Of a stretch of DNA of 64,000 bases, positions 40,891 through 64,000 are shown piece by piece. Where the stretch lies: positions 186,001 through 250,000 of the forward strand of contig NZ_CANNDQ010000001.1 in assembly GCF_947503375.1 (NCBI RefSeq), read 5' to 3'. The notes beneath the pieces are model-generated. The model made no database searches, was not told the DNA's origin, and saw nothing but the letters and a program-made list of their open reading frames with translations. The translations under genes and the position numbers were made by a program. Within the stretch, counting starts at the first letter, position 1, and every line of letters starts with the position of its first letter. Origin of the DNA: an uncultured Psychroserpens sp. Lineage in GTDB: Bacteria; Bacteroidota; Bacteroidia; Flavobacteriales; Flavobacteriaceae.

Positions 40891-41067
40891 TTACTTCCCA
40901 AACATTAACAACTCGTTACAAACCACCTCAGTAGTATAACGCTTATTTCCATCTTTATCATCATAACTTCTAGAAGCCAATTTACCTTCTATCATAATCT
41001 CTTTTCCTTTGGTAACATATTTCTCTACAATTTCTGCAGTTTTTCCCCATGCAACAATATTGTGCCA
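40891..41067 (-). pseudogene. ssb: 3' fragment of single-stranded DNA-binding protein gene
   Basis: Minus-strand translation WHNIVAWGKTAEIVEKYVTKGKEIMIEGKLASRSYDDKDGNKRYTTEVVCNELLMFGK* is the C-terminal half of an SSB OB-fold; no in-frame start, and upstream similarity stops abruptly. Confidence 0.88.
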
Positions 41068-42536: not shown

Positions 42537-42554
42537 ATTATCAGTGTTTTAACT

Positions 42555-42585
42555 CTAAAATAAGACATGTTTTGACCAAATCAAA
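42555..42585 (-). promoter_or_regulatory. candidate Bacteroidota promoter of the recombinase gene
   Basis: Minus strand TTTG-N19-TATTTTAG (consensus TTTG-N19-21-TAnnTTTG, one mismatch), 18 nt before the start codon. Confidence 0.45.
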
Positions 42586-42599
42586 GCATACTTTTGTAA

Positions 42600-45590: not shown

Positions 45591-45594
45591 ACTC

Positions 45595-46182
45595 CTAACG
45601 TGTGAAAATATCGTTTAGAATTGGCTTGCGATCATTTTCTGATATTGCACGTATTCCTTTATCCTTAGTGATTTCATCAATAACCTTCAAAACTGATGAT
45701 TGTGCATAGGTCATAAACATACTAGCCGTATCTATTTTGTAATACGTCACAGGAAACAATTTTCTCGTTAACCAACCTCCAATAAATGGGATTTTTGAAA
45801 TAATAATTTGCAAAACAGAATTCTTATAGAGTAACCACCATGAAACAAAAAACCCTTTCCCAAAAGGTGCTGCACAAATATCATATTGATACTCTTTCCA
45901 TTTTACGCGTATATATCTTCTTCTTTGTGAAAACATACTCCCTTCATAAAGTGAAACATCATTAGCGTTGATGCCACTTACGCCTTGACTCAGCAATTCT
46001 TTTTTGAATAACTGGTAAAAATCCTCTGTGGAATAATTAAAATCCTCAATCAAAGTATTCCAATTAGAATGATAATACTTTAATGTTTTTGTGAAAATGA
46101 ATTTTAGGATAACAAAACTGATTAATCCATATAAAATGTAGATTAGGTATTGTGTAAAATAAAAGAAAAACTCATTCATCAT
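45595..46182 (-). CDS. hypothetical membrane-anchored protein co-encoded with the ATPase
   Basis: 195 aa, N-terminal TM; 4-nt gap to the ATPase start. Confidence 0.7.
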   Translation of the reverse strand: MMNEFFFYFTQYLIYILYGLISFVILKFIFTKTLKYYHSNWNTLIEDFNYSTEDFYQLFKKELLSQGVSGINANDVSLYEGSMFSQRRRYIRVKWKEYQYDICAAPFGKGFFVSWWLLYKNSVLQIIISKIPFIGGWLTRKLFPVTYYKIDTASMFMTYAQSSVLKVIDEITKDKGIRAISENDRKPILNDIFTR

Positions 46183-46184
46183 AT

Positions 46185-46646
46185 TTACTTTTTAATGAAT
46201 AATTTTGACCATTGTTTATTATCACTTTTTATATGTATCAAGTAAATTCCACTTAAAAACCTACTAACATCAATAGATATTGAGTTTTCAACAATTTGGG
46301 CATTATGATCTAAGATCATTTTCCCATCAACGTCAAACAATTGAATCTCTAATTGATTAGACACTAGTTCAGTAGGCATTTGAATATTCAAAATTTTATT
46401 AGTTGGATTTGGATATACGATTATTCGGTTTTTTAGTACCTCTTCATCTAAACTTAAGGTTTCAATATTCAGTTGTGTTCGATTCCCTAAATTATCGTAG
46501 ACATAATCATGTGTTGAGCCATCATTAAAAACAACCTGAACCAAACGGTTCAAGTTGTCATAACTGTAAGTTGTTGTTTCTTGTTGTAATTGAGCATTAG
46601 CTGAAATGCCAAATAGTATTAATAAGTATTTAATTTTTGTTTTCAT
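46185..46646 (-). CDS. mini YD-repeat protein with signal peptide and T9SS type A sorting domain
   Basis: TTYSYDNLNRLVQVVFNDGSTHDYVYDNLGNRT then VYPNPTNKILNIQ...GIYLIHIKSDNKQWSKLFIKK. Confidence 0.82.
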   Translation of the reverse strand: MKTKIKYLLILFGISANAQLQQETTTYSYDNLNRLVQVVFNDGSTHDYVYDNLGNRTQLNIETLSLDEEVLKNRIIVYPNPTNKILNIQMPTELVSNQLEIQLFDVDGKMILDHNAQIVENSISIDVSRFLSGIYLIHIKSDNKQWSKLFIKK

Positions 46647-47055
46647 AAGTACGAAATTTTAAACGTATTGGGAGTCTATATAAAGTAATTAGAAATATTG
46701 ATATGATGGTAAATGATTTAAGAAATACAAGAATAACGGGCAACTCAAAATATTTGGGCATCAAACCTAAACTATACTGTATAAGATTTAAACTTTCATA
46801 AGTTATATATAAACTGATCAAATTTTTAATAAAACCTAAACGATAATTCTTAAATTTGCTTTTGAACATGAGAATAATTTTAATCAATAACAAAAGAATC
46901 ACAATTTGTAAAAAATATCTTAAGAATAGATCATTTTTAAATTCAATTCTCACCATCATTTCTGCACTCAATATTATCAATTGAAAAAATAATAATCGTA
47001 AAAAATTAATATCTAACTTCAAGTTGCGTAACATCTTGTTCTTTAATAAAATCAT
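46630..47055 (-). CDS. multi-pass membrane protein, candidate immunity protein for the upstream RHS toxin
   Basis: About 4 predicted TM segments by eye; overlaps the 3' end of the RHS gene and the next gene. Confidence 0.6.
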   Translation of the reverse strand: MILLKNKMLRNLKLDINFLRLLFFQLIILSAEMMVRIEFKNDLFLRYFLQIVILLLLIKIILMFKSKFKNYRLGFIKNLISLYITYESLNLIQYSLGLMPKYFELPVILVFLKSFTIISIFLITLYRLPIRLKFRTYENKN

Positions 47056-50000
47056 ATATAATTCCTATGTTTTGACCCGTATCAATACAGCCTGCTGAAC
47101 CATTAATTAAACCACCATGTAGATAAAAATTATTTCTTCCCCAATTATTATTCCCATCGATTGGTTTAAGCGATATGTTGTAATCTCCCCAGTCCCCGTT
47201 GCGCGGATTAACAATATTTATTAGTTGTCTCCATTTTGGTATGTAATCCCAGTCATTTCCTAAACTGTAAGTTCCTTCTGGAATAGGTCCTAAATTTTTC
47301 AGGCTTTGATACTGAGATTGATTTATATATTTTCCTCTACCTGAGGTTGCAAAAGTTGAATAAATTGTATTCCCTTCTGAATTTAAAACTGATAAGTAGT
47401 TACCATCGTAATATAAACTCTTTACTTCAGAACTACTAGAGGAACAAATATCATATCCCACATAAGCCTTACCACTCGGATCAACACTACTAATCGGATT
47501 ATTATCAGCATAAGGATATAAATTAATATGCCAAATAGGGTCTTCGGATAAGAACCTACCAATTGATGGCTCGTAGTATCGTGCTCGCATATAGTATAAA
47601 TCATTTGTTTCATACTCTACACCATAGATGCCTACATATCTAAATTGGTTAGTATCATTTTCAGGCTCAAAGGTTCTAGTTACTCTTCCAAAATCATCAT
47701 AACGATACTGATGTGTGATGTTACCTAACTCATCTGTCATCATTACCGTACTCCCTCTTATATCACCATGATAGTAGTGTAAATCTCCATTGGGTTGCAT
47801 TCTCGTAAGAAGCATTCCGCTTGGACTATAGACATAATATTGTATAGGGTTGCTGTCCTCATCTAATTCAACGAGTATATTATCTAACCTAACATCTCTA
47901 ATATACTTTGTAGTTTCTCCGTTTCTCACTGCTTCTACACGTTGATTGTAAGCATTATAATCAAAACTAAATGTATTGTCAACATCTGAATAACTTGTTA
48001 ATCGATCATCAATATCAAAGGTATAAGATATGTCTGCTCCTTCGTTTATTGTATTCCCATCGTCATCTAAGTTATAGCTTACTCCACCAGCTGATGTAAT
48101 TTGATTGTTTTCATCGTAACTATAAGAGAAATTAATGGAATTACTGGAATCTCCTGGATTAAAGCCTGGAGGAATTGGAGTGAAGTAGTCATTACTAACG
48201 GTAATATTTCCTCTACTATCTAAAAGGTGAGCACCTGTATACATGACAGAATTTGTATCTAAATTTTCATGTTGAATAAATCTCAATCTACCTGCCTCAT
48301 CATAGTCGTAATTTATTCTAATATTGTTTCCAAGATCAATCCACTTAATTCTATCATCATCGTAATATTCATATTCTGCAATAATATCATTACCACTACC
48401 AACATTTCTATTTAGGGAAACAATCCATATTCTATTTTTGTTGTCATATTGATAATCTACCTCGACATCAATTCCATTAATACTTGGATATAATAAATCT
48501 TCAACTTGATTAGTATCTGTGTAATCATACTCCACATCAAAGCCATGAACTGTAGTTACTTTTTCTAGTAGGTTTAGATTATCATAATCAAACTCCATTG
48601 TTCCATACGCATTGGTAATATCATCAACGAGGTTTCTATTATTATAATCGATGTCTGTAATGGTAGCTGTTTCTTGTAATCGACCATCATTGTCATAGTC
48701 ATAATCAATATCAATGCCTGAAGGTTTGGTGATTTCTTCTAAATACCCTTCATCACCATAATCAAATTGAGTTACTAGATTTCCAAATTGTTCTTCAATC
48801 ACTCGGTCTTCATCGTCATAAGTAAATGATGTCGCAACATTATTGGCATTCATTATTTGTATTAAATTATCATTCTCATCATAATCGTAAGCAGTCACAA
48901 AACCACCCGAGTTAATCATTTGAGTAATATTATCATTATCATCATACTCATATGAAGAAATGAGACCATTATCATCTCTTTCCAAAAGTCGATTTATTCC
49001 ATCGTAAGTAAATGCACTACTGATGTTTTCAGGTGCATTCATTGTTGATACAGCACCATCATTTTCATACGTATAATTTACTGTAATTCCTTCTTGGTTT
49101 GTTTGTGATAATAATTGTCCGTGAGAATCATAAGTGAAAAAAATTGAGTTATTATAAGCGTCTATAATTTCAATGAGGTTCTCATCATTATCGTAAACAA
49201 ATTCTGTGATATTACCTTCTGGATCTGTATATTCTACAAGATTATTATTGTTATCATAATCAAACTCTTGCACAACATCACCATTCTCTTTATCAATTCG
49301 AGTTATGTTTCCATTATTATCGTAATCATATTCAATATCTACTCCATTTAAATTTGTGTCTGTTGGACGTAATACATTAATCCCAGAAGATGGGTAATTG
49401 ATTGTAATTTCATCTGTATCACTTGAATAATCTGTAACTAAACCATTTTCGTTAAATGCATAATCTTCAGTAAACATTCCTCCACTAGGCAATGGTGTTT
49501 GTACTTCAGAAGTCAAGGTATTACTTTCAAAATCAAACTCTATATTAACTTCAATTGGGTCATCATCATTCATTTGATACTGACTCAGTTTTCCATTGAT
49601 ATCGTACTCAGCTTCAATTTGATTTCCTCTTGGTAAATCAATTCTGAACATTAAATATTGTTCATACTCATTATCTTGATAATACTGATAAGTAGTATTG
49701 TTGTTTTTTGCATCCTCAAATGCTACTAAAACTGGATACTGAAAAGCAAAATTTGAATTCACTCCTGAATATTCAAAATGAATATCTCTATTGATTGGAT
49801 CTTCAATTTTTTCAATGAGGTCAGTATCATCCAAATACTCAAATTCTAAACGCTTACCAGATGGAGCAATAACTTCTTCAATACGTCTAGTATCTTCCTC
49901 TTCTGCATTTTCGTATTCTATATTAATTTCATTTCCGTTAGGGTCTTCAATTTCAATGAGATAATAAATATTCCTATCATTGTCTAGCTTTTCAAATCGA

Positions 50001-51037
50001 TAACGAACCTGATTCTTTTTAGTAATATCAATACGATCATTATCCGAATCATCAAACTCATCATAAACACCAAGAGTTACATATTCATTTTCATCTTCAT
50101 TGTATATGTCAATTGTTCCGTCTGGCCAGATAATGTAATAGTAGTCTATTGAGTCTTCACCTACATTGTTTTCTCTTACGATGTAAGCATTATAAGTATG
50201 TGACCATCCTCTTCCAAGTGGTTGAATAGGATAAAAAGATTGAGGCATTTCTACCATTTGAGTACTGTAGAAATGAGAAAAATTTAGATTCATTTTTCTA
50301 TCAGGTATTATGAAACTATTTTTGGCATAGTGATTAAATACACCTTGCTCTATTCCTCTAGAAAACCCTAATGTTGATGAATTGTATATACCAGTTGTAA
50401 AGTAATTATCAATATCTAATAATTCACTCTGAGTAGGGGTCGAAACATTAGCTTCAAGAAATTCAATATAGTCTAATGTATCGCTGAATGGGAGTCCCAA
50501 TTCTGGTTGTAATTGAGACGTATTAGGAAGCATGCCTAATACATAGGCTGTTACAATATGGTCATAATAAATTGTATTCTGGTTGACATCACTGTAAGGT
50601 TCAGAGCCATTTGTAATTAAAGGTACATTAAATGCCTCAATGAGAGCTTTAATAATGCTAGCATGAAATGGTATTTGACCAACATTAAAGTTTTGATCTT
50701 CACGTCTCAAGACTGAAATACCATCTTGAAACTCTAAATAACTTAGCAATCTTGCTTTTTTGCTAAACCCAGAATTTTCGCTAAGATCAACAAAAATATT
50801 TGGAAATGATGCTGCTGGGTAATCATCAGGGTCAGCATTGCTTCCGTATATAGAACTATAAATTGCATTTGTTAATCCTAATTTACTTGTTTGAGCATTA
50901 ATATCAAGTAAAAACAAGATGATAATTAGACTAGTAAAGTAAAATCTCATGGGTAATAATTTTGAATTACATTTATCAAAACTATGTGTAAAATGAGTCA
51001 AAAACCAAGTTAAATATTCTAATGATTTTGATTTCAC
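47006..51037 (-). CDS. RHS/YD-repeat polymorphic toxin with Tlde1 (DUF2778)/L,D-transpeptidase-like C-terminus
   Basis: Signal peptide from ATG at 50950 (MRFYFTSLIIILFLLDINAQ); many YD repeats; RHS core YYMRARYYEPSIGRFLSEDPI...NNPISSVDPSG; C-terminus FYLHGGLINGSAGCIDTG. Confidence 0.88.
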   Translation of the reverse strand: MKSKSLEYLTWFLTHFTHSFDKCNSKLLPMRFYFTSLIIILFLLDINAQTSKLGLTNAIYSSIYGSNADPDDYPAASFPNIFVDLSENSGFSKKARLLSYLEFQDGISVLRREDQNFNVGQIPFHASIIKALIEAFNVPLITNGSEPYSDVNQNTIYYDHIVTAYVLGMLPNTSQLQPELGLPFSDTLDYIEFLEANVSTPTQSELLDIDNYFTTGIYNSSTLGFSRGIEQGVFNHYAKNSFIIPDRKMNLNFSHFYSTQMVEMPQSFYPIQPLGRGWSHTYNAYIVRENNVGEDSIDYYYIIWPDGTIDIYNEDENEYVTLGVYDEFDDSDNDRIDITKKNQVRYRFEKLDNDRNIYYLIEIEDPNGNEINIEYENAEEEDTRRIEEVIAPSGKRLEFEYLDDTDLIEKIEDPINRDIHFEYSGVNSNFAFQYPVLVAFEDAKNNNTTYQYYQDNEYEQYLMFRIDLPRGNQIEAEYDINGKLSQYQMNDDDPIEVNIEFDFESNTLTSEVQTPLPSGGMFTEDYAFNENGLVTDYSSDTDEITINYPSSGINVLRPTDTNLNGVDIEYDYDNNGNITRIDKENGDVVQEFDYDNNNNLVEYTDPEGNITEFVYDNDENLIEIIDAYNNSIFFTYDSHGQLLSQTNQEGITVNYTYENDGAVSTMNAPENISSAFTYDGINRLLERDDNGLISSYEYDDNDNITQMINSGGFVTAYDYDENDNLIQIMNANNVATSFTYDDEDRVIEEQFGNLVTQFDYGDEGYLEEITKPSGIDIDYDYDNDGRLQETATITDIDYNNRNLVDDITNAYGTMEFDYDNLNLLEKVTTVHGFDVEYDYTDTNQVEDLLYPSINGIDVEVDYQYDNKNRIWIVSLNRNVGSGNDIIAEYEYYDDDRIKWIDLGNNIRINYDYDEAGRLRFIQHENLDTNSVMYTGAHLLDSRGNITVSNDYFTPIPPGFNPGDSSNSINFSYSYDENNQITSAGGVSYNLDDDGNTINEGADISYTFDIDDRLTSYSDVDNTFSFDYNAYNQRVEAVRNGETTKYIRDVRLDNILVELDEDSNPIQYYVYSPSGMLLTRMQPNGDLHYYHGDIRGSTVMMTDELGNITHQYRYDDFGRVTRTFEPENDTNQFRYVGIYGVEYETNDLYYMRARYYEPSIGRFLSEDPIWHINLYPYADNNPISSVDPSGKAYVGYDICSSSSSEVKSLYYDGNYLSVLNSEGNTIYSTFATSGRGKYINQSQYQSLKNLGPIPEGTYSLGNDWDYIPKWRQLINIVNPRNGDWGDYNISLKPIDGNNNWGRNNFYLHGGLINGSAGCIDTGQNIGIIYDFIKEQDVTQLEVRY

Positions 51038-51048
51038 CCCTCAGGGTG
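51031..51048 (-). promoter_or_regulatory. candidate dyad operator upstream of the RHS gene
   Basis: Minus strand CACCCTGAGGGGTGAAAT; shares 16/18 positions with 53092..53109. Confidence 0.5.
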
Positions 51049-51081
51049 ATTATTAAGGAGTATTTTTCACTATTATAAATT

Positions 51082-52626
51082 TTAAGAGACTTCTTTGAAG
51101 GATTCTTTTTCTTTATTGTAGATATAAATAGCCTTGGCTTGCGTAAAATTGCCATCAATTTTTTTAACTCTGTCTATCTTTTCTCTAAGTGATTTTCTTC
51201 TTGATTTTACAGCATCCACAGAAATAAATAATTTCTCAGACATTTTTTGTTGATCAAAACCTTGAATCCATAGCTCCCAAAATTCAATATTTTGAAGCGT
51301 TAACTCATATTTATTAATAAGATATTTTTTAAGTCCGTTTGCAAAATCTCTCTTTAGTTTATCTCTCTGAATCTTTTTGTAGAACAAAAAACCAATAGTT
51401 GAAGCAATTATTAATGTAAATCCTAGAATTATTTTGTTTCTTAATTTTAAATTATACTTTGCTTTAGCTAGTGTTTTTTCTTTTCTATCCAAATCAAAAC
51501 GAATACGAGCAAATTGATCTCTGTTATTTCTATCTACTATATCTAAACTGTCGCTGATCGATTTATACTTCGCAAAATATGCTTTGGATTTATCTCCATT
51601 ATATAGATTACCAAGAAAATTGAGAGAAACAAGATAATCTCTGTAGTTTTTTATTCTTCTTGAGAGCCTCTCTGCACGAAGTAAGTAATCAATTGCTTTG
51701 GACGTATCTGATTGAGAAACATAATATTCAGCCAAATGAATGCTATTGATTACAATACCATCCTCATCACTTTTTTCTTCTCTAATCTTTAATGCTTGCT
51801 TCATAAAATCTAGCCCTAGAGCTACGTCTCCTATCTTAAAAAGATTATGCCCATGATTGTCCATTACTGTAGCTTTAAATTTCGGAGATTTCGATAACAA
51901 GCTATCTTCATTTAAAATTCTAATAAAATATTCCGAAGCGTCTTGATATTGCGCATAATCCTTATATACTTTTCCAATATTATTTAAGGATTGTAAATAA
52001 AGAAATGGTTTCTTGGTAATACTCTTTCTCATTAATAATGCATCTTTATGATATCTAAGAGCATTATCTTTATCTTTTAGATTATTATATACAATCCCTA
52101 AGTTATTATATATTGATGATATAACTTTTTTATTTTCATAATTAGTTAAATATGTTAGGGCTCTAAATGAGGTAGACTCACTCCCAACATAATCGCGAAT
52201 ATTCTTTTGTAAAATAGCTGTATTAACAAGGACTCTCCCTAAACTAATAGAATCTTTTAAAGCATCATAAAGGAATGAGCTTTTAGTATAATAATAGTAA
52301 GCACTATCCATCTCTAATTGTTTTTGAAAATAAGCACCACTATATTCTAGAGTTTTAGCTTGTGCTAAAGTATCACCTAATCTTTCGCATAAAGTCATAT
52401 GATCAAATCGACACTTGTGAAACAATGACCATTCCTCATTAATATATGCTTGTCTTAAGCACTCTTTTAAAAGTTGATTTTTTATTGAATCATTAGCTAG
52501 TTCAAAAGTTTGATGATAGTTTTTGATTGAAAATTTGTCATTATTTTGCGCACATAATGACACATTTACAATGGCAAATAACAATATGAAGTACTTTAAA
52601 AAATTGTTTGAGTTAAGATAGGTCAT
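51082..52626 (-). CDS. membrane TPR protein with C-terminal LuxR/GerE-like HTH
   Basis: Signal peptide, TPRs, single TM (IILGFTLIIASTIGFLFY), C-terminal QGFDQQKMSEKLFISVDAVKSRRKSLREKI. Confidence 0.82.
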   Translation of the reverse strand: MTYLNSNNFLKYFILLFAIVNVSLCAQNNDKFSIKNYHQTFELANDSIKNQLLKECLRQAYINEEWSLFHKCRFDHMTLCERLGDTLAQAKTLEYSGAYFQKQLEMDSAYYYYTKSSFLYDALKDSISLGRVLVNTAILQKNIRDYVGSESTSFRALTYLTNYENKKVISSIYNNLGIVYNNLKDKDNALRYHKDALLMRKSITKKPFLYLQSLNNIGKVYKDYAQYQDASEYFIRILNEDSLLSKSPKFKATVMDNHGHNLFKIGDVALGLDFMKQALKIREEKSDEDGIVINSIHLAEYYVSQSDTSKAIDYLLRAERLSRRIKNYRDYLVSLNFLGNLYNGDKSKAYFAKYKSISDSLDIVDRNNRDQFARIRFDLDRKEKTLAKAKYNLKLRNKIILGFTLIIASTIGFLFYKKIQRDKLKRDFANGLKKYLINKYELTLQNIEFWELWIQGFDQQKMSEKLFISVDAVKSRRKSLREKIDRVKKIDGNFTQAKAIYIYNKEKESFKEVS

Positions 52627-52674
52627 TATAACAGTTGATAGATCTCAAAGATATGGAATAGAATCTCTTAAAAT

Positions 52675-52705
52675 AAAACCTCTTTGAAAATTTCAAAGAG
52701 GTTTA
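52675..52705 (-). terminator. intrinsic terminator after the small lipoprotein gene
   Basis: aaacctctttgaaa-a-tttcaaagaggttt. Confidence 0.75.
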
Positions 52706-52713
52706 TCTTTAAG

Positions 52714-52863
52714 CTAGTCACCTTCAAAAGGCTCTATGGTGTCATCAACTTCATCCCCAGTGCTGTATGCTGGAATTAAATCTTCATTATCTACAGAACA
52801 AGAGGTTAAAGCTACTCCCATGACTAGCAATGCAAATAAAAGACTTAGAGTGTGTGTTCTCAT
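52714..52863 (-). CDS. very small lipoprotein (49 aa)
   Basis: Internal ATG start gives MRTHTLSLLFALLVMGVALTSCSVDNEDLIPAYSTGDEVDDTIEPFEGD, a clean lipoprotein signal; followed by its own terminator. Confidence 0.65.
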   Translation of the reverse strand: MRTHTLSLLFALLVMGVALTSCSVDNEDLIPAYSTGDEVDDTIEPFEGD

Positions 52864-53091
52864 AGTAGTACTTTTACTTCCTAATTCAGTGCCTAGGATT
52901 CTGGCTATTAGGAATTGCACAATATGTCTTGCAAGACGCTCATTCAGAAAACCGTTCTTTTCAGTGGTTATTCTTCCACCAATTTATAATGCTCTTTCCT
53001 TAGGACAGTACCCAATATGAAAATGGTTCATTTTTACATGTTAACTATATGAATTTACATGAGAATATATTTCTCAGTCTACAAATCAAAA

Positions 53092-53109
53092 CACCCCAAG
53101 GGGTGAAAT
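53092..53109 (+). promoter_or_regulatory. candidate dyad operator upstream of the histidine kinase gene
   Basis: CACCCCAAGGGGTGAAAT, perfect CACCCC-AA-GGGGTG palindrome plus GAAAT extension. Confidence 0.5.
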
Positions 53110-53178
53110 TGTATTCTATTTATTAATCAAATAGTTTGTTTGACTGACATTAAATATCTTATAAGAAATTTATCCAAG

Positions 53179-55083
53179 ATGTTTAAAATCTACGTTTTAA
53201 TAATTTTACTTACTTCATTCAGTATACTGGCACAATCGACACAACACGATAGTATTATAGCCTTTAACCAAGCAAAACAAGAAGGTGTTAACTTAATTAA
53301 TAAGGGGAAATATTTTAGTGCTATAAATAACCTTCAAAGAGCATTAAAAATAATTCCACATGAACATTTAGACAGAAAAATTGAAGTGACATATTTGATT
53401 GGCAATGCTTATCAAAATGCTAGAGTTTTGGATTCTGCAAATCACTACTATCAAAAAGCAGATAAACTTTGTATTAACTCAAGCTCTAGTTTATCTAAGT
53501 CTTTAAAATATCATAATAAAGCATCTCTATATTTCACAAATTCAAAAATTGATAGTGCGATGGTAAATGCAATTAAATCTCTAGACTATGCTCTATTATC
53601 AAAAAACACAAAGCAAATCGTCTTAACGAAGAGTGATATAGGTTTGATTTTTTTATCACAAAAAGATTACAAAAATGCACATAATTATTTTATTGAATCA
53701 TTGGAGCTTGCCGAACAAAAAGGTGATACCCTCCAAGCAGCATTTATTACAACCTATCTAGGGCAATTAAACATAGAAAAAGGTAATCATGAAAAAGCTG
53801 AAGATATACTCAAAAGAGCAATTTTGGTTTTTGAAAAAAAGTCTAATAATAAAGGAATAATTATGGCAAAAGGTCATTTATCGAAAGCTTATTTTTTTCT
53901 GGGAAAAACTGAGGAAGCCATTAAAATAGGATATGAGTTAATTCCTATAATGAATCAATTAGAGATCAATAATGATTTAAAGAAACTAATATCAAATACT
54001 AACGCTATTACGGAAGTAGAAAAGAATCAAACTTTATCAGATTCAATAAAGATTGAAACTGCTTCAAAACTAGTGAAAGAAAACTTTGATGTAATTAAAA
54101 ACCCAATAATTAATGTTACCCAAAACAAAGCTCTAGCTAAATATACCGAGGAGCATAAAAATGCCATAGATGTCAAAAATGCAAGTCAACTTAGCAATGA
54201 GAATCTTAAAAGTCGATTTCAGAAAACTTTATTACAACAAGACAGTATCTATCAAGCCTCTTTAAATAGTAAATATCTCGAAATTGAAACTAAATTCAAA
54301 ACAGAAAAAAAAGAAAAAGAGAACCTCTTATTAAAGCAGTTAAATACTGAACAGGAATTGACTTTAGTAAAAGAAAGTAAACGAAGATGGCTTCTAATTA
54401 TAGGTCTCATATCATCTCTTCTAACATTATTTATTTTCTGGCTTTTTTATAGAAAAAATACAAGGCAGCGGATTATCATCGAGAATCTTCAAAAAGAGAT
54501 GCATCATAGAGTTAAGAATAATCTTGCAATTATAAATTCTTTTATTGACGTTACGAAAGGACAGGAAATAGATATAAATACTCAAAGAAAATTAGATGAA
54601 CTACAGAATAGAATAGATAGTATTAATCAGGTTCATAGTCAACTGCATGTTGGCAATGATGTCAGTAAACTAAATTTGAAAAAATACACTCGAAATTTAG
54701 CTAAAAACATAACAGCCACATTTGATAAAAAAACAATAGATATAATTATAAATATTGATGAAACTATATTTATTCATCCCGATAAATCATTTCCTTTAGG
54801 GTTGATCATAAATGAATTTTTAACAAACTCTTTCAAACATGCTTTTAATGACAATAGACCTGAAAAGTTAAGCATAATAGAGGTTACTTTTATCTGTCAA
54901 AAAGACTTTTATTGTTTAAAATTATCTGATAATGGATGTGGTTTGCCTTTAGATTTCAAAATCTCTACCTCAGAATCATTTGGAATTGAGGTAATGGAGC
55001 TTCTATCTCGACAACTTAAAGGAACATTTTCACTTAATGGAAACGATGGAGTAACCATAAATATTAAATTTCCAAAAAGCTAA
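53179..55083 (+). CDS. TPR sensor histidine kinase, HisKA_2 type
   Basis: Signal peptide from ATG at 53179, TPRs, TM, EMHHRVKNNLAIINSFIDV, N-box IINEFLTNSFKHAF, SDNGCGLP. Confidence 0.9.
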   Translation: MFKIYVLIILLTSFSILAQSTQHDSIIAFNQAKQEGVNLINKGKYFSAINNLQRALKIIPHEHLDRKIEVTYLIGNAYQNARVLDSANHYYQKADKLCINSSSSLSKSLKYHNKASLYFTNSKIDSAMVNAIKSLDYALLSKNTKQIVLTKSDIGLIFLSQKDYKNAHNYFIESLELAEQKGDTLQAAFITTYLGQLNIEKGNHEKAEDILKRAILVFEKKSNNKGIIMAKGHLSKAYFFLGKTEEAIKIGYELIPIMNQLEINNDLKKLISNTNAITEVEKNQTLSDSIKIETASKLVKENFDVIKNPIINVTQNKALAKYTEEHKNAIDVKNASQLSNENLKSRFQKTLLQQDSIYQASLNSKYLEIETKFKTEKKEKENLLLKQLNTEQELTLVKESKRRWLLIIGLISSLLTLFIFWLFYRKNTRQRIIIENLQKEMHHRVKNNLAIINSFIDVTKGQEIDINTQRKLDELQNRIDSINQVHSQLHVGNDVSKLNLKKYTRNLAKNITATFDKKTIDIIINIDETIFIHPDKSFPLGLIINEFLTNSFKHAFNDNRPEKLSIIEVTFICQKDFYCLKLSDNGCGLPLDFKISTSESFGIEVMELLSRQLKGTFSLNGNDGVTINIKFPKS

Positions 55084-55087
55084 TTAC

Positions 55088-55885
55088 ATGAAAGCACACA
55101 TTCTAATAGTTGAAGATGAAGCCTTACTTTATAAGAACCTTTGTAATGTATTGGAAAAAGAAAATTATTCAGTTGACAAATTTACACCAAGTGTAGAAGA
55201 AGCATTATCAAGAATTAATATGAAACGTCCTGACTTAATACTCTTAGATATTCAGCTTGAAGGTCAATTATCAGGTTTAGATTTGGGGGAGATTTTGAAC
55301 ACAAATTATCACATCCCTTTTATATACATTACAGGGCTGGATGATGATCAAACATTTTATGAAGGTCTTAATACAGAACATGAACTTTTTATAGTTAAAA
55401 CAAAACCAAGACTTAACCCAAAAGATATCATAAGAGCTGTTCAAACTATATTGAAGAAAAAAGAAACGAAAATAGCACAATTGAAAAATGGAGTCATGGG
55501 TCTTGTAATGTATCTTGATGAAATGAAAGAAACTGGAAGTGAAAAAATAACTAAAGTTCCTATTAAATTTTCTGATATAGGATACTTTACTGTTAAGCCT
55601 TTTATTAATGATAATGGTGAAGTAGAGGAGTTAAAATCCAATTACGTATGGTTTTTAACACAAAAAAAAGAACACTTTTTTATACGCTCTTCGTTATCAG
55701 AAATTTTATCTGTAGTGCCACATTATTTTGTCCGTATTAATGAAAGTTACATTGTAAATATCACCCCTAATATTTTGACTGGAAATATAAATAACTCGCG
55801 AATATCTATATTAAACCAAACTCTTACTATAAGTAATCGATACAAAAAAGAAGTTAAGCGTCGTTTTGAAGCTTTCTATAAATAA
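55088..55885 (+). CDS. LytTR-type response regulator
   Basis: Receiver ILIVEDEALLYKNL...DLILLDIQLEGQLSGLDLG...PFIYITG; LytTR RSSLSEILSVVPHYFVRINESYIVNI. Confidence 0.9.
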   Translation: MKAHILIVEDEALLYKNLCNVLEKENYSVDKFTPSVEEALSRINMKRPDLILLDIQLEGQLSGLDLGEILNTNYHIPFIYITGLDDDQTFYEGLNTEHELFIVKTKPRLNPKDIIRAVQTILKKKETKIAQLKNGVMGLVMYLDEMKETGSEKITKVPIKFSDIGYFTVKPFINDNGEVEELKSNYVWFLTQKKEHFFIRSSLSEILSVVPHYFVRINESYIVNITPNILTGNINNSRISILNQTLTISNRYKKEVKRRFEAFYK

Positions 55886-56126: not shown

Positions 56127-59100
56127 ATGGCTAGATTCCTATATTCGCTCGTTATCCTTATTCTATTATTTTTAAGTTTTAATCTATCAAATGCTCAAGC
56201 TGAACTTCCAGATGTAAGCACCTTAGTAAGTGTTCCAAATTCACCAGAAGCAGAAGCTTTTGTTTCTTATGGAAACACCCCTATATCATATTATGTAGGA
56301 AGACCTAATATTTCTATCCCTATTCATAGTATTGAGGGTAGAGAAATGTCTGTTCCTGTATCATTGACTTATGATGCATCTGGAATTAAGGTACAAAGCA
56401 TCTCAACAAATGTAGGAGCTGGATGGAACTTGAATGCTGGAGGCATGGTTGTAAGACGTGTAAATGGATTTCCTGATGATATTGTATCTGGTGATGCTTT
56501 TTTCAAAATTAATAGCTCTAGCGTGTTAAACTTCAATTCTTATTTGAACTCTTTAAGACATCCTGTTCACAACTATACATTAAGTTTTGAAACCTTTGAA
56601 CATACATTGGCCAAAATACAAAACTTCAGAGCCATTAAAATGGACCACGAACTAGGCGAAGTAGATTTATTGCCTGACACCTTTGATTTTAATGCACCAG
56701 GACTTACAGGTTCTGTTATGATAGATCCAGCGACGGGAATTGCTATAAGTATAGATGATCCTGATCTAAAAATCACATACACTGCTGCTTCTAATGGTAG
56801 TATCAATTCTTGGAATATAACGAGTGGTAACGGTACAATATATTACTTTAATAAATCCGAAATTACTTTTACATCTCACACGGGTGGAAGCGGAGAAGAA
56901 GGCACGAGAGAATATAACTCAGCATGGTATTTGACCAAAATAGAGTCCCCTACAAAGAATGATGTTTTTGATTTTACTTATTCATCTGGTATGTTTTGGA
57001 ATCAAGATCAATTGCATTACAATCGTCAGGTTGGACAAATTAGATTAACTGCATGTTTTGAAACTGGATATGATCCAACAAATCCAAATTGGATGTATAC
57101 CACTACTAGTAACTTAACTGACTTTAAAATAAAACAATCTGAACTATTGAATATTAGACTTAATGGAAGAGAAATTATAAAGTTTCACCATTTAACTAAT
57201 CGCTTAGATTTATCTGGCCGCAAAGAATTAGATAAAATAGATATTAAAGAAGGTGTGAAAATTTTAAAAACATTTACGCTTAACCAATCTTATTTTACAG
57301 CCAATAGTACGCCTACAGATGAAAAAGATTATCGATTAAAATTAGATGGTATTACAATACATGGTTACGATACTCAAGGTAATGCTGTGTTAACGCCAGC
57401 TGAGCAAGTACTGGATTATACATTCAATTATATTGGAGATAATACATTCCCTAGTCGTAATTCATTAGGGATTGATTATTTAGGCTATTATAATGGTGTA
57501 ACGAATAATACGTCACTTATACCAAAATACACTAATCAGTATGGTCAAATCTTCTTTGGAGCAAATCGTGAACCTAACTTCAATTTTACAACTAGAGGTA
57601 TGTTAGAAGAAATCTTCTATCCTACGGGAGGTTCGACAAAATTTACTTTTGACTATTTAGAAAATATAACTACAACACTCGTACCACAAGAATTAGCAGA
57701 ACACCTGGTAACAATCGATGGAGGAGTTGACACGTCTGCTGATGAATCAGATTTTTCTTGTGATGACACGGGGCTTATACCAAATACTTTAACACAAGCA
57801 TTTACCGTAGGCTCTGGAGAAGTTTTTGGAAATGAAAATGAGTATTATTTCGACGTTACCACTCAAGGTAATAATTCACAAAATGGACGTATGTTTTTTA
57901 TAGCTATCTATAAAGACACTGGTGTTTCAAATACAGTACCTCCAAATGTGACTATGTTACAAAATGGTGACATACAAATCATTAAACATGGTATTACAGT
58001 GGTAGTTGGACCAAATGAGTGCCAAGAGGTAATTTACAATAGTGGAAATTCTACAACAACTGTTTGTTATGATCATTATAGTAATTACTTTACTCCAACT
58101 AACAAAGACAAATCATATTGTGAGATATTAACAATGATAGAAAATAATAGTCCTGATTTGGTCTATAGCTCTTATTCCACTCCCAATGATGGTGATATTA
58201 TTACTACTGAAGGTGGCTTGAATTATTTTTTTCCAGGAGACTATAAGGTCTTTATCGCTAATAGTTTAATAGGTAAAAGTATTAAGTTAACCAGACGATA
58301 TGTTACGAATTCATTAGAGAGTAGTTATACAACCATTCCACTAATCTCAAAGATATCAGATAAAACCAATCAAGGCGAAACCTATATCAAAACATTGGAA
58401 TATTTAGATTATACTGTTCAACAAAAAGTTCAATTTGAAACCATTAAGGAAGTAGAGGATAATCTGGGACTTGTTTCTAATGGTGGTCAGTCTTGCCCCG
58501 AATATAAAGTACTAGAAAGGTACTCAACCAATCTCTACAGTCAAACACCTTATGAAATTACCTATCCAAAAGTAAAAGAAACCATCGAAGATGATCTGGG
58601 AAATAAATTAGGATCTACAGTTTACGAATATTATAACCAAAATTTTTATACGGTTAATCAGGTAAGTCCATACCCTATTGCTGGGGTTTATGTGCCAAAA
58701 ATCAACGAGCCATATGTAAAAACAAATCCTTTAAATGGTCAACTGAAACAAGTTTCACATTATAACAAATCTGGTCAAATCGTAAGAAAAGAGCTTTCCA
58801 ATTATGAATTTGAAGCATCACTAGTGACCACAGGAACTAATTTTTTTAGTAATAAAATACTTTATGATTATTGTCCAGTAGCGGTTGATGGGGAAATAGA
58901 TCCTAACTTAAAAAAACTTTTATACTTATATACCACAGACTTAGATATACCCGCATATAAACAATGTTTAAATGAAAATGGGTTTAATCCCATCAATGGA
59001 TTTATAACGACAGACCCATATTCAGATACAAATATTCAATTCCACTCCTTTAGAACTAGGTTAATAGAAAATATTTCTAAGGACTATGTTTATGATAGTA

Positions 59101-62100
59101 CTAACGCCATAGATTCTTTAACTCAAAAAGCAGAATACGCTTATGGATTAAATCATAACATGCCTACACAAGTTAAAAACACACTTAGTAACGGAAATAC
59201 CGTTTTCACAAACACAAAATATCCTGAAGATTTTGCTTCAGTAACTCCTGCAGAGCAGAAACTTATTGATCAACATCGCATTGCAACACCTATTAATACA
59301 GAAATACTGGTTAAAGATAGTAATGATCTACTTTTGGCTAAAACAACTCAGCGCAACGTATATAATGATTGGGGGAATGATTATGTGGCATCACAAGACA
59401 TACAAACAGCTAAAGGAAATGATACTTTAGAAGATCGTGTTACCATTCATAGTTATGACATCTATGGCAATCCACTTGAAGTCAGCAAAGCAGACGGCAC
59501 ACACATCATCTATGTTTGGGGTTATAGTAAAGTACTACCGATTGCAAAGATTGAAAATGCAACATACGTCGGCTTGGCTTCAAACATCCAAACCGATATT
59601 GATGCAGCAAAAACGGCTTCTAATTTAGATACTGATGCTGCTTCTGAAAACACGTTACGTACTGCTTTAAATACCTTAAGAGGTCATTTTCCAGATGCTA
59701 TGGTAAGCACTTATACCTATGATCCGTTAGTTGGTGTGACCAGTATGACCGATCCTAGAGGTTATACCATGTTTTATGAGTACGATCACTTAAATCGATT
59801 AAAACAAGTAAAAGACGATCAGGGTTATCTGTTAAGCACAAACGCTTATGTATATGGTAGTTTAAACTATGTTGACGCTACTGCATTTCAAGTGAAAACC
59901 ACCGATGGTCTAACCAATGCCAGCACTCAAGCTAATCTTACAGATGATGAAAAAATAGAAAGTAGAACTTATTATGATGGTCTTGGCAGACCAATGCAAA
60001 GTATTGCCAAACAGGCTGGAGGTAATAAGCAAGATATTATTACACCAATCGTGTATGATGCTTTTGCAAGACAAACAAAGGAGTATTTACCATTTGCAAG
60101 AAGTACATCTTCTCTCACTTACGAATCGCCTAGTACTTTAATGCCAGCCATTGATAGTTATTATGCAACAAGATACCCAGATGATATTGATGGTGCATCT
60201 CCAAACCCGTTTAGTGAAACCCGTATCGAAGATTCCCCTCTTAATCGAATACTAGAACAAGGTGCTCCTGGTGAAGATTGGGCTGTTGATGCAGCAAGTG
60301 ATTTGGATCACACCATAAAATTTGAATACCATACTAATAGTTCTTCTGAAGTTGAGCATTACAGTGTCTTTTTTCCAACACTAGATACTGAAGCGCCTCA
60401 ATTATTTTACAATGGCCATTATGCTGCTAATGAGCTTTTTAAAACCATTACTAAGGATGAAAACTGGCAACCAGGACAAACTCAAGCCAAAGCACATACG
60501 GTTGAGGAGTTTAAAAACAAACAGGGTCAAGTGGTATTAAAACGCACCTATGGCTCCAAAGGAAATAAACATGACACCAATTATGTGTATGACGATTATG
60601 GGAATCTGTCTTATGTGCTCTCTCCAAAAGGCAGTGATAATATATTAGCAAGTGTGAGTTATACTTCTGCAACCTACAACCCTAAGCCTTCAGATCTTAT
60701 TCCTTTGGATAAATTGGGTGTTCCTGTCACTACTGGCACAGGCGCCATTGATATTATTATTAATGCACCTGAAAATACCATTACGGTTGATTTTGATGTG
60801 ACTTTTAACGCAAGTACTTTTTTAAATAATGGAGCGGTGTTTCTTATAGATACTGGGATTCCAAATATGTTTATTGGAACCATTACTGCAAATGGAAGTA
60901 ATTATGCTGTTTCAGTACAAGATGGCTACTTATTTATAATGGGAACTGGTATGGTTTCTTCAATAGATCAAACCTTAGTAACTAGCTTACCAAATCATTT
61001 TATAAAATCAAACGTTGTAAATGATTTGTGCTATCAATACCATTACGATAATCGTAATCGTCTTATTGAAAAGAAAATCCCACAAAAAGGATGGGAATAT
61101 ATTGTATATGACAAGCTAGATCGACCTGTATTAACCCAAGATGCTAACCTTAAACAAAACGATGATTGGTTATTTACAAAATATGATGCAGTAAATAGAC
61201 CAGTATATATGGGAATACATCATAAAGTTCCTTCTGGAACTTCTGGAGCTCCAGACAATGATGAAAGAAAGCAATTACAGTATACTTTAAATACTGCAAC
61301 AGTTTTAAATGAGTCATCCAGTTCATCATATACCGTTATTGATGATTCTCCTGTGTATTATACCAACAGTGCATTTCCAAATACTGATATTACCGAATTG
61401 CATACGATCAATTATTATGATGATTATAATTCAGATCTTACTTCGGCATTTGCTGACCCAAATACCGTTTTTGGAGTCAGCACTACAAGTGATACTAGGT
61501 CTTTACCTACTGGTAGTAAGGTGAAAGTCTTAGACACCTCAGATTGGATTACTACAGTGACCTATTACGATGAAAAAGGCCAGTCTATATTTATTGGTAG
61601 TGAAAATGAGTATTTAGACACTACAGATCAAATGAAAAATGAACTGGACTTTACAGGTAAAGTGCTTAAAACCGAAAGTACGCATACCAAAGGCACTAAT
61701 GCCGATATTGTAGTAACAGACCGTTTTACCTATGATCATGCAAGTCGACTTAAAACCCAAAAACAACAAATTGGGTCTCAGGCTGAAGAACTGATTTCAA
61801 ATCATTTATATGATGATTTTGGACAGTTAGTTATTAAAAGTGTTGGAAATACTGAGACTTCGCCACTACAAAGTGTAGATTACAATTATAACATTAGAGG
61901 TTGGCTTAAAGACATCAATGATATTAATAACATTGGTAACGACCTATTTACCTTTAAAATCAATTATAACGATACCGATTTAGGACAAACGAACGACAAA
62001 CTCTACAACGGGAATATTAGTGAGACCATCTGGAAAACAGCTAATGACATCTCTAATACAACCACTAGAGGCTATGCCTATCAATACGATGCACTTAATA

Positions 62101-64000
62101 GGCTCAAAGTCGCTAACATGTCTATTAATACAGGTACTGGATTTACTGTGGCTAATGGCTATCATTCTAATGGCATTGTGTATGATAAAAACGGTAACAT
62201 TATGAGGTTGCAGCGAACAGGGACTTTTAATGTAGTGGATGATCTTACGTATACCTATGATGGTAATCAACTGCTTCGTGTTAGTGATAACGCTTTTGCG
62301 CATCTAGATGGCTTTAAAGATGGTAATACTGTTGGTGATGATTATAGCTACGACGACAATGGCAATATGATAGAAGACAAAAACAAAAACATCTCTACCA
62401 TAGCGTATAACCACCTTAACTTACCAACCACAGTAACCGTTGGTGGCACTAATAATGGCAGCATTACCTATGTATATGATGCTACAGGTGTTAAACTTAC
62501 CAAAGCCGTTATAGAAGCTGGTAGTACTACAACCACTAAATATGCTGGTAATTATATTTATGAGCAAACAGGTACTAGTGAGACATTACAATTCTTTTCA
62601 CATCCAGAAGGCTATGTTGAACCTGACGGTTCTGGAAATTATGATTATATTTACCAATACAAAGACCATTTAGGAAACGTTAGGCTTAGTTATAGCGATA
62701 CCAATGACAATTACATTTCATTTGTAGACAATGCTTTTTATCAAGAGTATGAAGGTTGGTCTCCCGTTGCAAGTTCTGCTAATGGTAGTATAGAATTAGA
62801 AAACAACCGTTTAAAGGTAAATGTTATTGATCAATGGAATGGTGCCTTTATTGTTATAGGTGATAACTTTGGTTCAGGTGAACAAATAGATATACATTTA
62901 GATGTGGATAAAGGTGATACTAATGTGGTACGAGTATATTTAGTAGAATCTGAGCAAAACTATGCTAATCCGTCATATTATATGCTTAATAATAATACAC
63001 AAACAGGAAGTTATACGTATACTCATACAACGATGGGGAAACCTAAGTTACGTTTAGTAATAGATAAATCTAACACCAACCTTAGCGAGTTAACTCATTT
63101 TTATATAGATAATGTATACGTATCTTCTGGTGATCTAGAAATTATTGAAGAAAATAACTATTACCCATTTGGCTTGAAACATAAAGGGTATAATAATGTA
63201 ATAAATGGTACAGACCACCGTTATGGTTTTGGAGGTAAAGAAGAACAAGATGAATTAGGTCTTGAGTGGATGGATTTTCACGCTAGAAATTATGATGCTG
63301 CTTTAGGTAGGTGGATGAATCTTGACCCATTAGCTGAACAATATTTCAATACATCACCTTATAGTTTTGCTTTAAATAATCCGATATTTTTTACTGACCC
63401 TAGTGGTGAAGAAGTTGATATATCTGCTTTATTGAGTACAACAATTGGAGAGGGAGATAAAAAACGGGATAAAACTGAGGATGAACTTAATAGAGATAAA
63501 TGGTTAGCAGCTCAGTTGGTTATTAGTCTTAGTGATATTTCAGGACAGGAAATTACTATTAAAACGGATAAGAACGGTAAATCTATCTTAGTAGGAGATG
63601 AAAATCCATGTGAAACAGATTGTAATGAAGCTAGTGCTTACATATCACATTTATTGAGTTCTGATACAGATACTATAAAAGTTAGTGGTACTGATTTTGG
63701 TTCTGATAGTAGTCAAGATGGTAGTGCAGCTCTATTAGATGGGGCTCAAATAAATGGGATGCAAGAAGCATTAAAAGAAAATGGATTTGATGAAAGAATG
63801 ATGAGTGTTGGAATGGCATTTTTACATGAAAGTTTACATCTTAATGCTGGTGCTGACTTTTTTAGTAGTGAAGAAGATGAAGCAAATAAAATAGATGGTA
63901 TCTTTAAAGACAATGTTTCAAGTAAATCGCCAGCTGGTCCAACTACGGACATAGTTAATAGATTTAGAGAAGGTATGCGTTTACCTATTAGGTCTGCAAG
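56127..64000 (+). CDS. giant RHS/YD-repeat protein (>=2624 aa, runs off window) with candidate HExxH metallopeptidase C-terminus
   Basis: Signal peptide MARFLYSLVILILLFLSFNLSNAQA, open frame to the edge (not in ORF track because no stop); ESRTYYDGLGRPMQSIAKQAGGNKQDI; RHS core DFHARNYDAALGRWMNLDPLAEQYFNTSPYSFALNNPIFFTDPSGEE; then MAFLHESLHLNAGADF. Confidence 0.9.
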   Translation, partial: MARFLYSLVILILLFLSFNLSNAQAELPDVSTLVSVPNSPEAEAFVSYGNTPISYYVGRPNISIPIHSIEGREMSVPVSLTYDASGIKVQSISTNVGAGWNLNAGGMVVRRVNGFPDDIVSGDAFFKINSSSVLNFNSYLNSLRHPVHNYTLSFETFEHTLAKIQNFRAIKMDHELGEVDLLPDTFDFNAPGLTGSVMIDPATGIAISIDDPDLKITYTAASNGSINSWNITSGNGTIYYFNKSEITFTSHTGGSGEEGTREYNSAWYLTKIESPTKNDVFDFTYSSGMFWNQDQLHYNRQVGQIRLTACFETGYDPTNPNWMYTTTSNLTDFKIKQSELLNIRLNGREIIKFHHLTNRLDLSGRKELDKIDIKEGVKILKTFTLNQSYFTANSTPTDEKDYRLKLDGITIHGYDTQGNAVLTPAEQVLDYTFNYIGDNTFPSRNSLGIDYLGYYNGVTNNTSLIPKYTNQYGQIFFGANREPNFNFTTRGMLEEIFYPTGGSTKFTFDYLENITTTLVPQELAEHLVTIDGGVDTSADESDFSCDDTGLIPNTLTQAFTVGSGEVFGNENEYYFDVTTQGNNSQNGRMFFIAIYKDTGVSNTVPPNVTMLQNGDIQIIKHGITVVVGPNECQEVIYNSGNSTTTVCYDHYSNYFTPTNKDKSYCEILTMIENNSPDLVYSSYSTPNDGDIITTEGGLNYFFPGDYKVFIANSLIGKSIKLTRRYVTNSLESSYTTIPLISKISDKTNQGETYIKTLEYLDYTVQQKVQFETIKEVEDNLGLVSNGGQSCPEYKVLERYSTNLYSQTPYEITYPKVKETIEDDLGNKLGSTVYEYYNQNFYTVNQVSPYPIAGVYVPKINEPYVKTNPLNGQLKQVSHYNKSGQIVRKELSNYEFEASLVTTGTNFFSNKILYDYCPVAVDGEIDPNLKKLLYLYTTDLDIPAYKQCLNENGFNPINGFITTDPYSDTNIQFHSFRTRLIENISKDYVYDSTNAIDSLTQKAEYAYGLNHNMPTQVKNTLSNGNTVFTNTKYPEDFASVTPAEQKLIDQHRIATPINTEILVKDSNDLLLAKTTQRNVYNDWGNDYVASQDIQTAKGNDTLEDRVTIHSYDIYGNPLEVSKADGTHIIYVWGYSKVLPIAKIENATYVGLASNIQTDIDAAKTASNLDTDAASENTLRTALNTLRGHFPDAMVSTYTYDPLVGVTSMTDPRGYTMFYEYDHLNRLKQVKDDQGYLLSTNAYVYGSLNYVDATAFQVKTTDGLTNASTQANLTDDEKIESRTYYDGLGRPMQSIAKQAGGNKQDIITPIVYDAFARQTKEYLPFARSTSSLTYESPSTLMPAIDSYYATRYPDDIDGASPNPFSETRIEDSPLNRILEQGAPGEDWAVDAASDLDHTIKFEYHTNSSSEVEHYSVFFPTLDTEAPQLFYNGHYAANELFKTITKDENWQPGQTQAKAHTVEEFKNKQGQVVLKRTYGSKGNKHDTNYVYDDYGNLSYVLSPKGSDNILASVSYTSATYNPKPSDLIPLDKLGVPVTTGTGAIDIIINAPENTITVDFDVTFNASTFLNNGAVFLIDTGIPNMFIGTITANGSNYAVSVQDGYLFIMGTGMVSSIDQTLVTSLPNHFIKSNVVNDLCYQYHYDNRNRLIEKKIPQKGWEYIVYDKLDRPVLTQDANLKQNDDWLFTKYDAVNRPVYMGIHHKVPSGTSGAPDNDERKQLQYTLNTATVLNESSSSSYTVIDDSPVYYTNSAFPNTDITELHTINYYDDYNSDLTSAFADPNTVFGVSTTSDTRSLPTGSKVKVLDTSDWITTVTYYDEKGQSIFIGSENEYLDTTDQMKNELDFTGKVLKTESTHTKGTNADIVVTDRFTYDHASRLKTQKQQIGSQAEELISNHLYDDFGQLVIKSVGNTETSPLQSVDYNYNIRGWLKDINDINNIGNDLFTFKINYNDTDLGQTNDKLYNGNISETIWKTANDISNTTTRGYAYQYDALNRLKVANMSINTGTGFTVANGYHSNGIVYDKNGNIMRLQRTGTFNVVDDLTYTYDGNQLLRVSDNAFAHLDGFKDGNTVGDDYSYDDNGNMIEDKNKNISTIAYNHLNLPTTVTVGGTNNGSITYVYDATGVKLTKAVIEAGSTTTTKYAGNYIYEQTGTSETLQFFSHPEGYVEPDGSGNYDYIYQYKDHLGNVRLSYSDTNDNYISFVDNAFYQEYEGWSPVASSANGSIELENNRLKVNVIDQWNGAFIVIGDNFGSGEQIDIHLDVDKGDTNVVRVYLVESEQNYANPSYYMLNNNTQTGSYTYTHTTMGKPKLRLVIDKSNTNLSELTHFYIDNVYVSSGDLEIIEENNYYPFGLKHKGYNNVINGTDHRYGFGGKEEQDELGLEWMDFHARNYDAALGRWMNLDPLAEQYFNTSPYSFALNNPIFFTDPSGEEVDISALLSTTIGEGDKKRDKTEDELNRDKWLAAQLVISLSDISGQEITIKTDKNGKSILVGDENPCETDCNEASAYISHLLSSDTDTIKVSGTDFGSDSSQDGSAALLDGAQINGMQEALKENGFDERMMSVGMAFLHESLHLNAGADFFSSEEDEANKIDGIFKDNVSSKSPAGPTTDIVNRFREGMRLPIRSA

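What the first reader, a model, noticed from the sequence alone, without database searches (positions are those of the whole stretch)
51031..53109. Shared dyad motif upstream of the RHS operon and the histidine kinase
CACCCTGAGGGGTGAAAT (minus strand, upstream of RHS start 50950) and CACCCCAAGGGGTGAAAT (plus strand, upstream of HK start 53179) match at 16/18 positions, in the same orientation relative to their genes. These are GC-rich islands in very AT-rich intergenic DNA. They suggest one regulator, perhaps the dyad-binding LuxR-type TPR protein encoded between them or the LytTR regulator, controlling both toxin operon and signalling genes.
Basis: partly seen in the sequence, partly recalled or inferred. 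Interest (0 to 1): 0.65.

Follow-up and report, generated by a model that had tools for sequence, protein, structure and literature searches.

The report
Paired switch sites flank toxin regulator
Two matching DNA sites, found nowhere else in this flavobacterium's genome, sit in front of a toxin operon and a sensor-kinase operon, on either side of genes for a membrane sensor-regulator and a small lipoprotein, so they probably let that one local regulator control both neighbours.

Summary
CACCCTGAGGGGTGAAAT (51031-51048, -) and CACCCCAAGGGGTGAAAT (53092-53109, +) are the only sites within one mismatch of CACCCNNNGGGGTGAAAT in the 3.38-Mb genome. In 2000 shuffles of the two upstream regions none gave an equally G+C-rich 16/18 match.

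The LytTR regulator is an unlikely binder. It appears to have its own operator, three direct repeats of RTGAAAAT type at 21-bp period (53017/53038/53059), the standard LytTR architecture. I found such arrays upstream of 14 related HK-LytTR loci; the window copy is its genome's best match. RHS1 lacks one.

The protein between the dyads is a membrane TPR sensor. Its closest TPR relatives are histidine kinases, but here the kinase is replaced by a sub-threshold GerE/LuxR-like HTH. A 49-aa acidic lipoprotein gene precedes it, a pairing seen at 12/29 related TPR-sensor loci (0/58 controls). The dyads flank this gene pair and lie upstream of both neighbouring operons. Best reading: operators of this local one-component regulator (about 0.5). 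Binding is not shown, the dyad is not conserved elsewhere, and the HTH call is weak.

The parts
51031..51048 (-). Dyad A, CACCCTGAGGGGTGAAAT, upstream of RHS1
   Evidence: one of two sites genome-wide
53092..53109 (+). Dyad B, CACCCCAAGGGGTGAAAT, upstream of the HK-LytTR operon and between it and the divergent lipoprotein/LuxR-like genes
53017..53066 (+). Predicted LytTR operator: direct repeats ATGAAAAT / ATGTTAAC / ATGAGAAT at 53017, 53038, 53059 (21-bp period)
   Evidence: best hit in the whole genome to the triplet pattern; only intergenic hit >=13 in the window with a PWM built from other species
51082..52626 (-). TPR sensor with one TM segment and a GerE/LuxR-like C-terminal HTH (514 aa): proposed dyad-binding one-component regulator
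   Evidence: TPR Pfam hits; GerE sub-threshold E=0.0019; TPR part 37% identical to a LytTR-paired histidine kinase in L090
52715..52863 (-). Small acidic lipoprotein (49 aa), proposed partner of the TPR sensor
   Evidence: translation; similar ORFs upstream of related TPR sensors
53179..55083 (+). TPR histidine kinase (HisKA_2/HATPase)
   Evidence: Pfam; homologues next to LytTR in relatives
55088..55885 (+). Receiver-LytTR response regulator
   Evidence: Pfam; 42-61% identical relatives
56127..63998 (+). RHS2: giant RHS/YD protein, frame open to the window end region; downstream of HK-LytTR
   Evidence: NCBIfam Rhs_assc_core; sequence
47006..50950 (-). RHS1 with RHS repeats and a Tlde1-like C-terminal tip; gene behind dyad A
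   Evidence: Pfam RHS_repeat, Tlde1_dom E=4.8e-9
50977..51008 (-). Candidate RHS1 promoter: TTG at 51008, TAGTTTTG (TAnnTTTG) at 50984-50977
   Evidence: sequence; Bacteroidota -33/-7 consensus from general knowledge; not tested
53109..53138 (+). Candidate HK promoter: TTG at 53109, TAGTTTG at 53132 (one base short of TAnnTTTG)
   Evidence: sequence; weak, inferred

Best explanation
The two dyads are operators of one dedicated local regulator: the membrane-anchored TPR protein encoded between them, a one-component sensor in which the histidine-kinase output of its nearest TPR relatives is replaced by a LuxR/GerE-like HTH. It would receive a periplasmic signal through its TPR domain, perhaps from the small lipoprotein encoded just upstream. 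It would then bind dyad A to control the RHS1 toxin operon and dyad B to control the HK-LytTR-RHS2 genes, and possibly its own divergent operon. The dyads lie about 70 bp (RHS1) and 45 bp (HK) upstream of predicted start points, which suggests activation rather than blocking. The LytTR regulator would act separately through the triplet direct repeats upstream of its own operon. Shown: the sites, their uniqueness, the gene layout, the LytTR-type array and its conservation, and the lipoprotein-TPR pairing. Inferred: who binds, the direction of the effect, and the signal.
For: Only two sites genome-wide, placed on either side of the same gene pair, each in the same orientation to the gene behind it. 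The G+C-rich match was not reached in 2000 shuffles. The HTH region has no relative at E<=1e-6 in 399 other family genomes, and a six-peptide scan of 84,980 genomes (close relatives only) found none, so regulator and sites share the same narrow distribution. The protein has TPRs and a GerE-like C-terminus that aligns over the HTH core with LuxR-type response regulators such as 4wt0. A LytTR-type array lies upstream of HK and none at RHS1, leaving the TPR-HTH protein as the best candidate among the adjacent genes. HK-LytTR pairs recur next to RHS or T9SS-tailed proteins in some relatives, which fits toxin control.
Against: No binding data. The GerE match is below Pfam's cut-off and both models are poor. 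The dyad is not found upstream of HK homologues in 18 relatives, so there is no footprinting support. The dyads differ at the centre and lie at different distances from the predicted promoters. An unlinked regulator is not excluded.
Confidence: 0.5

Rival explanations
1. The dyads bind another transcription factor encoded elsewhere on the chromosome that has only these two close targets.
For: Dyads are good transcription-factor sites and no binder is proven.
Against: Only two sites in 3.38 Mb favours a local regulator; a widely held factor would be expected to leave sites in relatives, and 399 family genomes gave one coding hit.
Confidence: 0.15
2. The dyads are LytTR binding sites.
For: The tail GTGAAAT of dyad B resembles the repeat RTGAAAAT and lies 44 bp (2 x 22) after the third array repeat; LytTR is in the operon behind dyad B.
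Against: LytTR domains bind direct repeats about two helical turns apart (PMC11347149), not G+C-rich dyads. That architecture is present separately at 53017-53066 and in relatives. RHS1 upstream has no such array.
Confidence: 0.07
3. The dyads act as RNA hairpins (attenuator, terminator or mRNA-stability element).
For: Dyad A folds to -9 kcal/mol on the RHS1-sense strand and dyad B to -10 on the HK-sense strand; dyad A follows the LuxR-like gene's stop by 34 bp and could affect read-through into RHS1.
Against: No T-run in the sense direction at either site; folding z-scores only -1.1 to -1.6; the shared AAAT tail is not explained.
Confidence: 0.1
4. The dyads are inverted recombination sites that flip the lipoprotein/LuxR-like segment, perhaps through the nearby serine recombinase.
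For: The copies are in inverted orientation about 2.06 kb apart; a large serine recombinase lies at 41025-42536.
Against: The central two bases differ (GA against AA), the flanks share nothing beyond the motif, and each candidate promoter lies outside the segment. The recombinase resembles CcrB/XisF types and sits with a HerA-like gene as a module also in Zhouia, where no such dyad was found.
Confidence: 0.05
5. Chance similarity without shared function.
For: A 16/18 match between two such regions is seen in 13/2000 shuffles, and the finding was picked after the fact.
Against: 0/2000 with the observed G+C content, both palindromic, only intergenic G+C-rich 6+6 dyads in 64 kb, unique genome-wide.
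Confidence: 0.13

Closest known systems
LuxR/NarL-FixJ (GerE) HTH regulators and their dyad operators
   Same: C-terminal HTH weakly matching GerE; candidate operators are G+C-rich dyads with a two-base centre upstream of promoters
   Different: Sub-threshold match; fused to a membrane TPR sensor, not a receiver domain; binding not shown
TPR histidine kinases of Bacteroidota (FimS-like)
   Same: TPR region matches NCBIfam FimS weakly (E=8.9e-17, far below the equivalog cut-off) and is 37% identical to the TPR part of the L090 kinase
   Different: Kinase replaced by an HTH
LytTR triplet operators (RcoM1, CoxC; PMC11347149)
   Same: Three 8-bp direct repeats, about 13-bp spacers, two-turn period, upstream of the target operon
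   Different: Consensus RTGAAAAT is different; found here for HK-LytTR pairs in Flavobacteriaceae, autoregulatory position; binding not shown
RHS/YD proteins of Bacteroidota
   Same: RHS repeats, associated core, toxin-like tip, T9SS sorting tail on the orphan tail gene
   Different: Here under two different local cis-elements, by inference

Membership tests
LytTR operator (array 53017-53066) | Short direct repeats about two helical turns apart (pair or triplet) | tested here: met
   In relatives 19 repeat pairs at spacing 21 and 9 at 42, at most 3 at any other spacing; window array three repeats at 21 bp, the middle one degenerate
LytTR operator (array 53017-53066) | Upstream of a LytTR operon and not general in the genome | tested here: met
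   Best genome-wide hit lies upstream of the HK-LytTR operon; relatives likewise
LytTR operator (array 53017-53066) | Bound by the LytTR domain | not testable with these tools
   EMSA needed
LytTR operator (the CACCC dyads) | Direct-repeat architecture | tested here: not met
   Dyads are inverted repeats; no 21-bp repeat array at RHS1
LuxR/GerE regulator (51082-52626) | GerE HTH domain above family cut-off | tested here: inconclusive
   E=0.0019, 18.2 bits against 23.5; AlphaFold models pLDDT about 70, fold search uninformative
LuxR/GerE regulator (51082-52626) | Binds a dyad operator | not testable with these tools
   No binding data
Serine-recombinase inversion sites | Identical crossover core in the two sites | tested here: not met
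   Central GA against AA
Intrinsic terminator | G+C-rich hairpin followed by a T-run in the sense direction | tested here: not met
   only the antisense strand of dyad B has a T-rich tail

The most novel reading that the evidence does not exclude
The locus is a lipoprotein-signalled toxin switch: an unnamed family of about 50-aa acidic lipoproteins acts as ligand for TPR sensors in Flavobacteriaceae, and here the sensor's kinase has been swapped for an HTH so the same kind of signal drives two flanking operons directly through the paired dyads, in parallel with a LytTR two-component system on one of them.
Probability: 0.2. Interest if true: 0.7.

Novelty: new variant of a known kind. Interest (0 to 1): 0.42.

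Why it matters
It gives a testable wiring diagram for an RHS toxin locus in Flavobacteriaceae: two distinct cis-elements (a local dyad and a conserved LytTR-type triplet) and two sensors. The array offers a predicted operator for HK-LytTR pairs at 14 related loci, and the lipoprotein-TPR pairing suggests what such sensors may detect.

Tried and rejected
The family-wide motif search gave only a coding chance hit. Searches for the HTH and the full protein in other genomes found no close relative. Dyad footprinting upstream of HK in 18 relatives failed. A shared TTTGACT word after both dyads was not significant (407/5000 shuffles). The two-repeat LytTR pattern is too common in this AT-rich genome (387 hits, control 264), so the triplet was used. 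Structure prediction and fold search of the HTH were uninformative. Rfam and tRNA scans of the window were empty. Literature searches on TPR sensors with small lipoproteins and on LytTR in Bacteroidetes found nothing direct. Considered and rejected: inversion sites, terminators, LytTR sites (see rivals).

Full report
Observation. The two 18-mers are present as described. In the whole genome no other site lies within one mismatch of CACCCNNNGGGGTGAAAT. Two weaker hits that I examined lie in one coding frame, and the single exact hit in 399 other family members is inside a coding frame.

Layout. On the minus strand run the small lipoprotein gene (52863-52715), the TPR-HTH gene (52626-51082), dyad A and the RHS1 gene (50950-47006), followed by a small gene, an orphan RHS tail with a T9SS sorting domain and other genes. 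On the plus strand dyad B precedes the TPR histidine kinase (53179-55083), a receiver-LytTR regulator (55088-55885) and a very long RHS protein (from 56127). The dyads therefore flank the lipoprotein/TPR-HTH pair and lie upstream of both neighbouring RHS-bearing gene sets.

LytTR. Upstream regions of related HK-LytTR operons show direct repeats RTGAAAAT at a 21-bp period: 19 pairs at spacing 21 and 9 at 42, at most 3 at any other spacing. A consensus-free lag test over 22 regions also peaks at 21 (z 4.2). I first saw the consensus by eye; the lag test does not depend on it. This is the known LytTR site architecture: pairs of 9-bp repeats spaced 10-13 bp, or triplets of 8-bp repeats with 12-13 bp spacers for RcoM1 (PMC11347149). 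Fourteen related loci carry it, four of them (L077, L078, L083, L088) with two clear repeats and a weak third. A PWM built only from other species finds the window's best plus-strand triplet at 53017-53066, the only intergenic hit above the threshold. The triplet pattern has its single best genome-wide match there (2 mismatches; 17 hits within 3 mismatches against 5 for the control). The window's middle repeat is degenerate and its score (13) is lower than those of relatives (15-29). The Zhouia locus L089, not used in training, has a perfect triplet. In some relatives a reverse-strand array lies between the regulator gene and the next gene. RHS1 and RHS2 upstream regions in the window have none. 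So the LytTR regulator probably has its own site, and I consider it an unlikely binder of the dyads.

The protein between the dyads. Its TPR region matches TPR sensor kinases and is 37% identical over 460 residues to a LytTR-paired kinase in L090, up to the start of the kinase region. The C-terminus matches GerE below the cut-off and aligns with LuxR-type response regulator domains in the PDB at E 0.27-0.7, among other weak hits. Two single-sequence structure models were of low confidence and uninformative. I therefore treat 'LuxR-type' as probable, not shown.

The lipoprotein. The 49-aa ORF 52715-52863 has a lipobox and acidic tail. Similar ORFs (for example MKILKLLLAFFILSTITTSCTPQALDDNQIINPQATGSEDNTVDDGSKD) lie within 450 bp upstream of 12 of 29 TPR-sensor loci, including all eight closest, against 0 of 58 control stretches. 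The sampled members match no Pfam or NCBIfam family above its cut-off. The pairing supports reading lipoprotein plus TPR sensor as one unit, with the output domain exchanged in this locus. That the lipoprotein is the ligand is a guess.

Mechanism. Most likely the TPR-HTH protein is a dedicated one-component regulator binding both dyads. Candidate promoters by the Bacteroidota -33/-7 consensus (general knowledge) put dyad centres about 70 bp (RHS1: TTG 51008, TAGTTTTG 50984-50977) and 45 bp (HK: TTG 53109, TAGTTTG 53132) upstream of the start points, as for activators. This placement is inferred; the HK -7 box is imperfect.

Verdict. A real, locus-unique pair of sites with a plausible local regulator, not yet a demonstrated one. 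The more general by-products are the LytTR-type triplet upstream of related HK-LytTR operons and the unnamed lipoproteins upstream of TPR sensors.

Noticed in passing
window 53017-53066; L065, L073, L076-L081, L083-L085, L087-L089 upstream of HK: Predicted LytTR triplet operator, RTGAAAAT x3 at 21-bp period, conserved upstream of HK-LytTR operons; in several loci (L076, L077, L080, L081) a reverse-strand copy precedes the gene after the regulator.
   Followed up: yes
L076:7882, L079:7890, L080:7950, L083:2481, L084:7878, L089:7781 (+): Near-identical palindromic element TTGAATGTTAAAATTTTAACATTTATATT, apparently the HK promoter with a palindromic spacer, absent from the window.
   Followed up: partly
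window 52715-52863(-); L005-L012, L014, L016, L023, L024, L069, L074, L090: Unnamed family of about 50-aa acidic lipoproteins encoded just upstream of TPR sensors (often with a QATGG or STGD motif before the acidic tail).
   Followed up: partly
window 41025-46182(-); L089:2395-7631(-): Large serine recombinase (CcrB/XisF-like), HerA/TraD-like ATPase and a 195-aa protein form a module that is also next to HK-LytTR in Zhouia (62/56/64% identity).
   Followed up: partly
window 47006-50950(-) and 46630-47055(-): RHS1 has a Tlde1-like C-terminal tip; the following 141-aa hydrophobic ORF may be its immunity protein.
   Followed up: no
L084:10872-14981 (Xanthomarina): RHS1 homologue (42% over 1238 aa) lies directly after HK and LytTR, unlike the split arrangement in the window.
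   Followed up: partly
L089:7781-8374 (Zhouia): A lipoprotein-like gene lies between the conserved array plus promoter and the HK start, as if inserted.
   Followed up: no
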